Assembly (NCBI GenBank): GCA_038893495.1
Contig: JAWARJ010000001.1
Location: 1,725,824 to 1,789,823, forward strand
From: Thermoproteus sp.
GTDB lineage: Archaea > Thermoproteota > Thermoprotei > Thermoproteales > Thermoproteaceae
Direction of reading: 5' to 3'
Length of the DNA stretch: 64,000 nt
Made by a program: the position numbers and the translations under genes. Under the pieces are notes generated by a model, which had not been told where the DNA came from, did not search any database, and saw only the letters and a program-made list of their open reading frames with translations. Positions 13,186 to 61,972 of this stretch are shown here, piece by piece (within the stretch, counting starts at the first letter, position 1; each line of letters starts with the position of its first letter).

Positions 13186-13237
13186 GTGATGAAATTGGTC
13201 TTTGCCGAAGCTCCATGACGACGGGAACGAAGCCTGA
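13186..13237 (+). ncRNA. C/D-box guide RNA
   Basis: C box GTGATGA (13186-13192), 12-nt guide AATTGGTCTTTG, D' CCGA (13205-13208), 6-nt spacer, C' ATGACGA (13215-13221), 12-nt guide CGGGAACGAAGC, D box CTGA (13234-13237). Both guides are exactly 12 nt, as expected for a thermoproteal dual-guide sRNP RNA directing 2'-O-methylation. CTTTATAG (13162-13169) is a possible promoter. Targets were not identified. The rest of the gap to 13290 shows nothing else. Confidence 0.8.
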
Positions 13238-58788: not shown

Positions 58789-60378
58789 CTAGAATAAAGA
58801 CGCCAATAGGAGAGGCGCCACGATTAAATATGTAGTCATAATAGCGCCCAACTTCTTATAGCTCTCAATGACGCCTCTAATCTGCGCGAAGTTGTTGCCG
58901 AAGACCTCGACCTCCACCTCAACTTCCTTATAGGCCCCCCGCCCGGCCCCGAGCGAGGCTTCCGCCGACGCCACTGCCCTATCTACTAGCTTAAAGAGGT
59001 CCTCGTGCCGTATCCCCGAGCCTACAGTCCTATATCCGCCGTTGCCAACGCCGACGCCTGTAGACGCATGTGTGTCGGTAGTAATGGCCTCTACGAGGTC
59101 ATAGGAACGATATCTCTCTTGTAATTTTTTGTAGAACTCGGAATCCATGTTGTTGCCGTCGAAGACAACCAAGAGGCTCTTACGCCCATCGCACTTAGTG
59201 ACTATTGCGGCCACGCCGCCGGCCCCCAGCTCCAGCCTTAGAGGGTCGACGAAAGAAGAGTCGGCCCTGCCTATGCCTATCTTAAAGTCTCTACAACTCT
59301 TCGACTGCAATCCATCTAGTGCCTTTTGGAGCGCAGAGATATCTTTTTCATCCCAACGTAGAGGCCCATCGAACTTATTCTGGGCATCTATCAGAATATA
59401 GCCTCTACGGTCTATCCTCTCTGCTACATATAACGGGATGTCATCCGATGCCGAATGGACTCTCGACACTATGGCGAGCGGAGGGCCTACGCCTAGAGAG
59501 AACGTAGTCACCCTAATGTCGTCTACCTCTAACCTCTCAGGCTCGACCCCGCCCACAAGCCCCTCAGGCCGTATAGTCGAAGCGGCCCTAAACACCTCGT
59601 TGACAATCCTCTCCACATCTTCGGAGGATACGGGGTCCCTCTCGTGGCCTCCAACTCCATGCATGAACACTACGTCGTAGCCGCTTCTAAGCCCTCTAGC
59701 CACTAGCTTCTCTATTAGGGAGCCCCCACCTATATTCCTAAAAGGCCCTGGATGGAAATCCGACACTACGAACAAATGACGCGAGCTACCTTCAATTAGG
59801 TATAGATGTAACTTCCCGCGGTCCTTAACGCCTAACGGCTTAAAGGCGTGGTCGAACATGCCCTCGGCCGACACCGATGAGTAGATAAATGCGTTAAACA
59901 TACAAAGCGCGTTGCCGCCTTTAACTCTCGCTGAGAGGTATCTCTTCAAGAGGGGCATAGAAACGGCGTATATAGACGCCACAATGGCCAGGGCATAATC
60001 ATGTATATATAAATAAAATAATATAGTAAATCCAATTGGAAGTAAATATATCCTACTATTACAACGTAGAGACATTGCCATAGATGATGCTATAACCGAC
60101 GATATAATTACATAATGTAACGGAGGCCTATTGAGCAACAAGTCAAACAATGCGGCGAGCCCTAGAGAAAAAGAGACCACTTGAAATATGCCCAACTTAG
60201 TCCATAACTTCCACCCAACGGCCATGAAGAACGAATAGAAAGCAATAAAGGCAATGATATAAATAGCTCCTCTTTTTAAGAATATATCTAATAAAATAAT
60301 TAGAAATAGGACATACGATAAGATTTTAGGGAAGTCACTAAAAATGTTGTTATATGCCTCCTCAAAAGTCCTCTTCAT
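58789..60378 (-). CDS. DUF2070 membrane protein
   Basis: 529 residues. About seven N-terminal membrane helices (residues 15-165) are followed by a soluble domain with HPGPFRNIGGGSLIEKL near 213, VFMHGVGGHERDPVS near 240 and TDTHASTGVGVGNGGYR near 437, and one C-terminal helix. This is the archaeal DUF2070 architecture. The conserved His/Asp residues in the soluble part suggest a metal-dependent hydrolase, but no function is known. It is coupled to the upstream gene by a 4-bp overlap. Confidence 0.88.
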   Translation of the reverse strand: MKRTFEEAYNNIFSDFPKILSYVLFLIILLDIFLKRGAIYIIAFIAFYSFFMAVGWKLWTKLGIFQVVSFSLGLAALFDLLLNRPPLHYVIISSVIASSMAMSLRCNSRIYLLPIGFTILFYLYIHDYALAIVASIYAVSMPLLKRYLSARVKGGNALCMFNAFIYSSVSAEGMFDHAFKPLGVKDRGKLHLYLIEGSSRHLFVVSDFHPGPFRNIGGGSLIEKLVARGLRSGYDVVFMHGVGGHERDPVSSEDVERIVNEVFRAASTIRPEGLVGGVEPERLEVDDIRVTTFSLGVGPPLAIVSRVHSASDDIPLYVAERIDRRGYILIDAQNKFDGPLRWDEKDISALQKALDGLQSKSCRDFKIGIGRADSSFVDPLRLELGAGGVAAIVTKCDGRKSLLVVFDGNNMDSEFYKKLQERYRSYDLVEAITTDTHASTGVGVGNGGYRTVGSGIRHEDLFKLVDRAVASAEASLGAGRGAYKEVEVEVEVFGNNFAQIRGVIESYKKLGAIMTTYLIVAPLLLASLF

Positions 60379-61259
60379 AGGCTCTCTATATAGGACCGTA
60401 GCGCCATCGCTTGTGAGTGGATCGATATATATCTCAGAAATGTGTTGTATTTAGGCATCCTGTAGATATATAGCACCTCATTAAGCATATCTAGGGCCAT
60501 ATATCCGGCCGGCGCTATTTCTATCTCGCCTATCCTGTTAGCTATATGCCTATGAGTCTTTGCGTCCACGAAGGGGTGGAGAAGGACGGCGTAGTCGAGC
60601 CCATATTTGAGGTAGTCGCCTATCGCTGAGAACCCCATATGTACTGTCCTATTTATATCAACATACCGTATTTCTACTATATATTTATTATTAAGTTTTA
60701 TTAGTATATCTATTTGAGTATTATATTTGTTTACTAATTGTGGTATATATGAAATCTTATTTAAAACCTTTTCTATTCCGCCCCAGAGGAAGTAGCCAGC
60801 GGCCCTGAGGTACTCCGAAAATGCCTCGACTGTATCTCCCCCGCCTATCCCAGCCACGCTCACCACATAGGGCCTCTTTACGGTCTGCACCTCCTCCTCT
60901 TCGACCGGCAGATATTCGACCACCTGCTCGCTTAGGGCCGTGTGAGGTATGTAGATAAACCCACCTACATCTTCGGCAACGCCAACTTTGACCAGCCCAT
61001 AAAGAGCCGCACAGAGCCCAACCGCCGCCGTACATTCAACCAACAAGCTACCCGAGAGGAAGCCGAAGCCCCTTACATTGGCCTTGTTGTTCCTTAAGTC
61101 GCTGAGCGCCTTCATGGACTCCCGCGGCGCCTCTGCTATCCTCTTAACTATGGAGTCCAGCGGGTAGAGTCGTTCTGCCCTCTCGGCCTCAGCCTTGTGG
61201 TCGGCAGGAGTACATGAGAGCTCTCTGGCGCAGAGCAGATCCACGGCAACATGGGGCAT
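60375..61259 (-). CDS. Hypothetical protein coupled to DUF2070
   Basis: 294 residues, not recognised. There is one moderately hydrophobic stretch (ECTAAVGLCAALYGLVKVG), an acidic linker around EEEEVQTVKR, and a C-terminal alpha/beta part with DILIKLNNKYIVEIRYVDI and YAVLLHPFVDAKTHRHIANR. The latter, with D/E-x-K-like residues, loosely resembles restriction-endonuclease-fold proteins; this is weak. ATG 61259 is the annotated start. GTG 61244 fits the TATA element (about 61266) equally well. Confidence 0.65.
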   Translation of the reverse strand: MPHVAVDLLCARELSCTPADHKAEAERAERLYPLDSIVKRIAEAPRESMKALSDLRNNKANVRGFGFLSGSLLVECTAAVGLCAALYGLVKVGVAEDVGGFIYIPHTALSEQVVEYLPVEEEEVQTVKRPYVVSVAGIGGGDTVEAFSEYLRAAGYFLWGGIEKVLNKISYIPQLVNKYNTQIDILIKLNNKYIVEIRYVDINRTVHMGFSAIGDYLKYGLDYAVLLHPFVDAKTHRHIANRIGEIEIAPAGYMALDMLNEVLYIYRMPKYNTFLRYISIHSQAMALRSYIESL

Positions 61260-61270
61260 ATAATAAATTT

Positions 61271-61319
61271 TCAGTCAATCGAGCGGTCTTCACGAATCTA
61301 GCCGGGGATAATTCATCAC
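61271..61319 (-). ncRNA. C/D-box guide RNA, predicted 23S rRNA (PTC) target
   Basis: Minus strand, textbook layout: C GTGATGA (61319-61313), 12-nt guide ATTATCCCCGGC, D' TAGA (61300-61297), 3-nt spacer, C' GTGAAGA (61293-61287), 12-nt guide CCGCTCGATTGA, D CTGA (61274-61271). The first guide is complementary over ten bases to CCGGGGATAA, the near-universal 23S segment just before the catalytic A2451 (E. coli numbering). N+5 points to G2445. The C box overlaps the udg stop codon. Confidence 0.9.
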
Positions 61320-61909
61320 AGGTACTTCAACAAGCCTCCCTGCGACCTCCCTAAAAACTTAGCGAGGTCTCCCTCCAAGACGTCCCTAAGGCCTGGATTG
61401 TAAAGCGCGGCGGCAGGGTGATAGGTTACGCAGACCGCCGTCTCTACATCAGCTATCTTTACGTTGAAACATCTGCCCCTTACCTCCGATATCTTTACGA
61501 CCTTACGTCCAGCGAGTCCCATAAGCGTCTTGGCGCTATAGAAGCCAAGCGCGATTATTAGGCGAGGCCTAATTGCCTTGATCTGTTCCACCAAATAGGG
61601 CAGGCAGGCCGCTATCTCGTCGTCAAGAGGTTCCCTATTGCCAGGCGGTCTACATTTGACCACATTGGTTATGAAGACGTCGCGCGCTCTGTCCACACCC
61701 AATTTGTTCAGAGCTTGAGTCAAGAGCCTCCCGGCGGCCCCCACGAAGGGCCTCCCCTCTTCGTCCTCCTTCTCGCCTGGGGCCTCGCCTACTATCATCA
61801 CGCCCCTCTCCGCCCTCCCCTCCCCGGGCACTGGCCTTCTGCGGGTTTCGTGTAGCCTACATTTTGTGCACATCTGTATTTGTTTCGCTATCTCTTCAAG
61901 CCTCTCCAC
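61316..61909 (-). CDS. udg: Family 4 uracil-DNA glycosylase
   Basis: 197 residues. Iron-sulfur cysteines in MCTKCRLHETR near residue 14, then NVVKCRPPGNREP and AACLPYLV (about 85-103). Active site GEAPGEKEDEEGRPFVGAAG near 42 and VTYHPAAALYNP near 163. It removes uracil from deaminated DNA. The frame opens at TTG 61933, but TATA spacing and family length favour GTG 61909. It is divergent from the CdvA-like gene. Confidence 0.95.
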   Translation of the reverse strand: MERLEEIAKQIQMCTKCRLHETRRRPVPGEGRAERGVMIVGEAPGEKEDEEGRPFVGAAGRLLTQALNKLGVDRARDVFITNVVKCRPPGNREPLDDEIAACLPYLVEQIKAIRPRLIIALGFYSAKTLMGLAGRKVVKISEVRGRCFNVKIADVETAVCVTYHPAAALYNPGLRDVLEGDLAKFLGRSQGGLLKYL

Positions 61910-61972
61910 TACGCCGCTTCTTAATACCGACAATTAACTATTACTCTTTTTATTTCGCCGACGCCGAATTAC

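What the first reader, a model, noticed from the sequence alone, without database searches (positions are those of the whole stretch)
61271..61319. C/D-box RNA with a guide against the 23S peptidyl-transferase centre
All four boxes and exact 12-12 guide spacing are visible. Ten bases of the D' guide (ATTATCCCCGGC) complement CCGGGGATAA, the conserved 23S strand leading to A2451. By N+5 the modified base would be the second G of GGGG (E. coli G2445, itself an m2G in bacteria). The C box overlaps the udg stop codon, so the RNA is either processed from the udg mRNA or transcribed from within the gene.
Basis: partly seen in the sequence, partly recalled or inferred. Interest (0 to 1): 0.75.

Follow-up and report, generated by a model that had tools for sequence, protein, structure and literature searches.

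The report
Archaeal rRNA-methylation guide RNA beside udg
This is a real, conserved small guide RNA in Thermoproteus, but its conserved target in the large ribosomal RNA is helix 69, at the interface between the two ribosomal subunits, and not the peptidyl-transferase centre as first proposed; it is an ordinary new member of a well-known RNA class.

Summary
In detail: on the minus strand at 61319..61271 there is a C/D-box sRNA with boxes C, D', C' and D and two 12-nt guides; its C box contains the udg stop codon. It is conserved directly downstream of udg in all five Thermoproteus genomes that have this udg. It is absent from the same udg / downstream-ORF junction in Pyrobaculum, where the gap is 21-28 nt instead of 71-88 nt.

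The target claim fails. CCGGGGATAA does not occur in this organism's 23S rRNA; the peptidyl-transferase strand reads CCCCAGGAATAACC and gives at most 4 contiguous pairs. The D' guide instead pairs over 11 positions (10 Watson-Crick, one G:U) with GCCGGGGGTAAC, the 5' strand of helix 69; predicted site G2041 (E. coli G1907). The match is kept in all five species (column-shuffle P=0.001).

The D guide best fits helix 68, 25 nt upstream, making a double-guide RNA. In three species, including this one, it is mismatched exactly at the N+5 base, so it probably binds without methylating. Expression and methylation are untested. New member of a known kind.

The parts
61271..61319 (-). C/D-box sRNA, whole element from C box to D box (49 nt)
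61313..61319 (-). C box GTGATGA; contains the udg stop codon TGA (61316-61318)
   Evidence: invariant in five species
61301..61312 (-). D' guide ATTATCCCCGGC; pairs with 23S GCCGGGGGTAAC (helix 69, 5' strand); predicted 2'-O-methyl site G2041 = E. coli G1907
61297..61300 (-). D' box TAGA (TGGA, TGGA, AGCA, ATGA in relatives)
61287..61293 (-). C' box GTGAAGA
61275..61286 (-). D guide CCGCTCGATTGA; best rRNA site 23S ACAACCGGGCGA (helix 68), mismatched at the N+5 base (A.C, C2016)
61271..61274 (-). D box CTGA
   Evidence: invariant in five species
61316..61933 (-). udg, family-4 uracil-DNA glycosylase; host gene whose stop codon lies in the C box
61259..61270 (-). AT-rich TATA-like stretch AAATTTATTATA directly after the D box, placed as promoter of the downstream ORF (inferred from position)
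60375..61244 (-). Downstream ORF (VDLLCA...; GTG start chosen by homology, an ATG lies upstream at 61259); no Pfam or NCBIfam match; also next to udg in Pyrobaculum, without the sRNA

Best explanation
An archaeal double-guide C/D-box sRNA, found in Thermoproteus, seated between udg and a conserved downstream ORF. It is most likely cut out of the udg transcript: L7Ae, Nop5 and fibrillarin bind the C/D and C'/D' motifs, and the unprotected RNA ends are trimmed away. The D' guide pairs with the 5' strand of 23S helix 69, and fibrillarin 2'-O-methylates G2041 (E. coli G1907). The D guide pairs with the helix 68 strand 25 nt upstream; in this species it is mismatched at the N+5 base, so it probably anchors or chaperones the rRNA without methylating it. 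Shown here: the anatomy, its conservation, the complementarity and its maintenance under guide substitutions, and a fibrillarin gene in this genome. Inferred: expression, processing, methylation and the anchoring role.
For: Same boxes, spacing and guide cores in five Thermoproteus genomes. D' guide to helix 69: 10 Watson-Crick pairs plus one G:U here (11 plus one in T. tenax), best site over all 16S and 23S for the five orthologues together, P=0.001 with guide columns shuffled in common. In AZ2 two guide substitutions (T5C, C7T) move the G:U but keep the 11-position duplex with helix 69. The D guide's best rRNA site lies 25 nt away, P=0.0045 within 100 nt. Filled versus empty junction in Thermoproteus versus Pyrobaculum. 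Fibrillarin present. Helices 68-71 are a known methylation hotspot and stop codons inside C boxes are common (PMC4644070; PMC7994747).
Against: No expression or methylation data. The helix 69 duplex has a G:U, so it misses the strict rule of nine consecutive Watson-Crick pairs (PMC4644070). A single random 12-mer of this window scores as well 2.4% of the time. Over all rRNA the D site has only P=0.07. D' is a poor box, and in AZ2 (AGCA) poorer still.
Confidence: 0.8

Rival explanations
1. One reading: the D' guide directs methylation in the peptidyl-transferase strand next to A2451 (E. coli G2445).
For: Ten guide bases complement CCGGGGATAA, the bacterial-type strand (seen in the E. coli sequence).
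Against: That string is absent from this 23S. The strand is CCCCAGGAATAACC in all five species; the longest run of pairs is 4 here, 5 in T. tenax, and the AZ2 guide changes weaken it further.
Confidence: 0.02
2. The sRNA is transcribed from its own promoter lying inside the 3' end of udg, not processed from the udg mRNA.
For: In four relatives the codons for the conserved LLKY end of udg give a TATA-like TTTTAAAATA-type stretch about 20-28 nt before the C box (sequences).
Against: This species reads TTGTTGAAGTA there, and the stretch is constrained as coding sequence. Only about 20% of archaeal C/D sRNA genes show a promoter-like motif (PMC7994747).
Confidence: 0.15
3. The D guide does not act on helix 68 but on another RNA: pre-tRNA-Asp in this species, or 23S CCAATCAAGCCC at 915 (one mismatch, Watson-Crick at N+5), or nothing (orphan guide).
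For: Nine contiguous pairs with the intron-containing pre-tRNA-Asp of this genome; 23S 915 pairs with one mismatch; helix 68 is mismatched at N+5 here.
Against: The tRNA-Asp intron is missing in T. tenax and T. uzoniensis although T. uzoniensis has nearly the same guide. The 915 site scores below helix 68 for the five species together.
Confidence: 0.3
4. A decayed sRNA gene or a chance motif in the udg 3' region with no function.
For: Weak D' box; no Rfam match above cut-off.
Against: Boxes and guide cores kept in five species, with the spacer variable; guide changes that keep pairing.
Confidence: 0.04

Closest known systems
[quoted passage not shown] 2015, PMC4644070; review PMC7994747)
   Same: Box anatomy, 12-nt guides, two rRNA targets within 100 nt, hotspot in helices 68-71, stop codon in the C box, occasional N+5 mismatch in one guide.
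   Different: This locus and guide pair are not named in the main texts read here. The T. tenax orthologue may be among the 52 T. tenax sRNAs in their supplement, which could not be opened.
Rfam sR5 (RF01304), sR14 (RF01145), snoPyro_CD (RF00095)
   Same: C/D-box layout; weak matches through the boxes (14.2 and 10.3 bits here; snoPyro_CD 21.8 bits on the T. tenax orthologue).
   Different: Far below the gathering scores of 40, 38 and 45; guides unrelated.

Membership tests
Archaeal C/D-box sRNA | C (RUGAUGA) and D (CUGA) boxes at the ends | tested here: met
   GTGATGA and CTGA, invariant in five species
Archaeal C/D-box sRNA | Internal C' and D' boxes | tested here: met
   C' GTGAAGA good; D' TAGA weak but with GA kept in four of five species
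Archaeal C/D-box sRNA | About 12-nt spacing between C and D' and between C' and D | tested here: met
   12 and 12 in all five species
Archaeal C/D-box sRNA | Guide complementary to rRNA or tRNA with a Watson-Crick pair at N+5 | tested here: met
   D' guide to helix 69, C-G at N+5, 11 contiguous positions with one G:U. The strict published rule of nine consecutive Watson-Crick pairs is missed because of the G:U. D guide: N+5 mismatch in this species.
Archaeal C/D-box sRNA | Conserved across related species | tested here: met
   Five Thermoproteus genomes
Archaeal C/D-box sRNA | Expressed as a ~50-60-nt RNA bound by L7Ae, Nop5 and fibrillarin | not testable with these tools
   Only the fibrillarin gene was confirmed
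   At most 4 contiguous pairs; CCGGGGATAA absent
Rfam sR5 / sR14 | Score above the gathering threshold | tested here: not met
   14.2 of 40 bits and 10.3 of 38 bits

The most novel reading that the evidence does not exclude
The D guide has become a dedicated non-methylating anchor: in three Thermoproteus species its pairing with helix 68 is kept on both sides of the N+5 base while that base itself is mismatched (A.C). In AZ2 the same guide is methylation-competent (G-C), and in T. tenax it fits a site 39 nt downstream of the D' site better. One orthologous gene family would then show an active, a dead-but-retained and a retargeted guide side by side, a natural test of the rRNA-chaperone hypothesis.
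Probability: 0.3. Interest if true: 0.5.

Novelty: new member of a known kind. Interest (0 to 1): 0.3.

Why it matters
It corrects a target: the predicted methyl is in helix 69, at the intersubunit interface, not in the peptidyl-transferase centre. It also gives a clean filled-versus-empty picture of a C/D sRNA gene in a conserved gene pair (udg / downstream ORF) between Thermoproteus and Pyrobaculum, with udg using the C box as its stop codon in one species only. That makes proposals about how such genes settle next to stop codons, and about chaperone-only guides, testable at one locus.

Tried and rejected
Peptidyl-transferase target: rejected from the organism's own 23S. D guide against the whole genome with a partly mis-specified wobble pattern: one fully pairing 12-mer, inside a CRISPR spacer (L040); hits were no more numerous than for the reversed control pattern, so taken as chance. 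D guide against tRNAs: 9 pairs with intron-containing pre-tRNA-Asp in this genome only; the intron is missing in T. tenax and T. uzoniensis. D guide against 23S 915 (CCAATCAAGCCC): one mismatch, lower joint score than helix 68. An 11-nt D' guide (D' = CTAG) rejected because it would lose the GA of the box in all five species. Pattern and model hits in other Thermoproteales genera lack the same guides or a complete C/D layout. A partial match in G017/G018 could not be settled because no 23S was found in those assemblies.

Full report
Setting. The window is part of a complete 1,995,394-base genome, G000:C1:1725824-1789823. A same-genus genome, G012, carries udg on a 23,789-base contig that equals a contig of Thermoproteus sp. 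AZ2. Two others have the sizes I know for T. tenax Kra1 (1,841,542) and T. uzoniensis (1,936,063); those two names rest on my own knowledge. The window is therefore taken to be Thermoproteus.

Observation. On the minus strand 61319..61271 reads GTGATGA-ATTATCCCCGGC-TAGA-TTC-GTGAAGA-CCGCTCGATTGA-CTGA: C box, 12-nt guide, D', spacer, C', 12-nt guide, D box. The udg stop codon (61318-61316) lies inside the C box; udg is a family-4 uracil-DNA glycosylase. A loose version of the motif is found twice in the window and never in 100 shuffles. No Rfam family reaches its cut-off.

Conservation. Downstream of udg in four other Thermoproteus genomes the same layout is present: GTGATGA-TTTATCCCCGGC-TGGA-CCCCG-GTGAAGA-GCGCTCGATTGT-CTGA (T. 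uzoniensis); GTGATGA-CTTATCCCCGGC-TGGA-TCG-GTGAAGA-GCGCTCGATTGT-CTGA (G013); GTGATGA-ATTACCTCCGGC-AGCA-TTG-ATGGCGA-GAGCTCGGTTGT-CTGA (AZ2); GTGATGA-GTTATCCCCGGC-ATGA-TCG-TTGACGA-GAACTCGGTAAG-CTGA (T. tenax). A sequence model of the five finds them at E=4e-20 to 5e-17 and nothing else in the family better than about 1e-3; the five built the model, so only the absence of other strong hits is independent information. C, D, spacing and guide cores are kept while the spacer varies, which argues for a functional RNA.

Locus history. In eight Pyrobaculum-genus genomes udg and a homologous downstream ORF are separated by 21-28 nt (3 nt in a ninth), mostly with a TATA-like stretch. In Thermoproteus the gap to the homologous start (VDLLCA...) is 83-88 nt in four species and 71 nt here, the extra length being the sRNA (the script's 56 nt for this species ran to an upstream ATG, and the homologous GTG is at 61244). 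The sRNA thus sits between the udg stop and the TATA-like stretch of the next gene. Whether it was gained in Thermoproteus or lost in Pyrobaculum is not resolved. In the other four species udg ends with its own TAG and the C box begins 11-15 nt further on. The simplest reading is that the stop/C-box overlap seen here is a later, species-specific deletion. Stop codons inside C boxes are common in archaea (PMC7994747).

D' target. CCGGGGATAA is absent from the organism's 23S. The peptidyl-transferase strand is CCCCAGGAATAACC in all five species; the longest run of pairs with the guide is four here and five in T. tenax. The best site is GCCGGGGGTAAC at 23S 2037-2048 (numbered from the start of the Rfam match), the 5' strand of helix 69, E. 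coli 1903-1914. It gives 10 Watson-Crick pairs and one G:U (11 plus one in T. tenax). With D' starting after the 12-nt guide, N+5 falls on G2041 = E. coli G1907. A single 12-mer from this window scores this well 2.4% of the time, so one match alone is only suggestive. For the five orthologues scored together, with guide columns shuffled in common, the probability over all 16S and 23S is 0.001. In AZ2 two guide substitutions exchange which position is the G:U and keep the 11-position duplex with helix 69, while they weaken pairing to the peptidyl-transferase strand. Under the published strict rule (nine consecutive Watson-Crick pairs, PMC4644070) the G:U leaves it short; that paper relaxes the rule for double guides.

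D target. With one mismatch allowed, the best site in all rRNA for the five D guides is 23S ACAACCGGGCGA (2012-2023, helix 68), 25 nt upstream of the D' site: P=0.0045 within 100 nt of that site, 0.07 over all rRNA. In this species, T. uzoniensis and G013 the mismatch (A.C) falls exactly on the N+5 base, C2016; in AZ2 that position is a G-C pair; T. tenax fits CTTGCCGGGTAA, 39 nt downstream of the D' site, better. PMC4644070 describes 16 double guides with such an N+5 mismatch and proposes binding without methylation. The same reading is proposed here and is an inference. A pre-tRNA-Asp match (9 pairs) depends on an intron not seen in T. tenax or T. uzoniensis.

How it works. By established knowledge of archaeal C/D sRNPs, L7Ae binds the C/D and C'/D' kink motifs, Nop5 and fibrillarin join, and fibrillarin methylates the rRNA ribose opposite the fifth guide base before D or D'. 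A fibrillarin gene is present. The RNA most likely comes from the udg transcript: in this species I see no TATA-like element before the C box, and the AT-rich stretch after the D box is placed for the next gene. Helices 68-71 are a known hotspot, so the target class is ordinary.

Verdict. Observation confirmed; peptidyl-transferase target refuted and replaced by helix 69 (with helix 68). A new member of a known kind, possibly already listed for T. tenax in a supplement that could not be opened.

Noticed in passing
window 13186-13237, + strand: A second C/D-box sRNA: GTGATGA-AATTGGTCTTTG-CCGA-AGCTCC-ATGACGA-CGGGAACGAAGC-CTGA, between ORFs. Its guides pair with 23S 909-920 (10 contiguous Watson-Crick) and 879-890 (9 contiguous), a clean double guide with sites 30 nt apart. 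A TTTATA lies about 24 nt upstream.
   Followed up: partly
L146 / L147 around locus position 1500 (G017, G018): Intergenic GTGATGAATTATCTCCGG(C/T)CCGA about 2 kb downstream of udg, preceded by AGCCCGGTAAAG-CTGA-CA: possibly the same helix 69 guide in a C/D RNA with the two halves in permuted order. No 23S was found in these assemblies to test it.
   Followed up: partly
L179 (G000:C1:1635432-1635464 +); L164, L168, L180, L165 in Pyrobaculum: The sRNA model also picked up other C/D-like RNAs with different guides, e.g. GTGATGA-TGTAACCCGGA-CTGA... in this genome and GTGATGA-GCCAACCCCGGC... in Pyrobaculum.
   Followed up: no
L262 / L261 (G000:C1:801552-801636): The tRNA-Asp gene of this genome carries an intron in the anticodon loop that T. 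tenax, T. uzoniensis and several Pyrobaculum copies lack.
   Followed up: no
L001, 23S positions 2569-2583: The peptidyl-transferase strand is CCCCAGGAATAACC: A at the E. coli G2444 and G2447 positions, in all five Thermoproteus genomes.
   Followed up: no
L040 around 1501: A CRISPR spacer in the same genome contains TCAATTGAGCGG, fully pairable (one G:U) with the sRNA's D guide; probably chance.
   Followed up: partly
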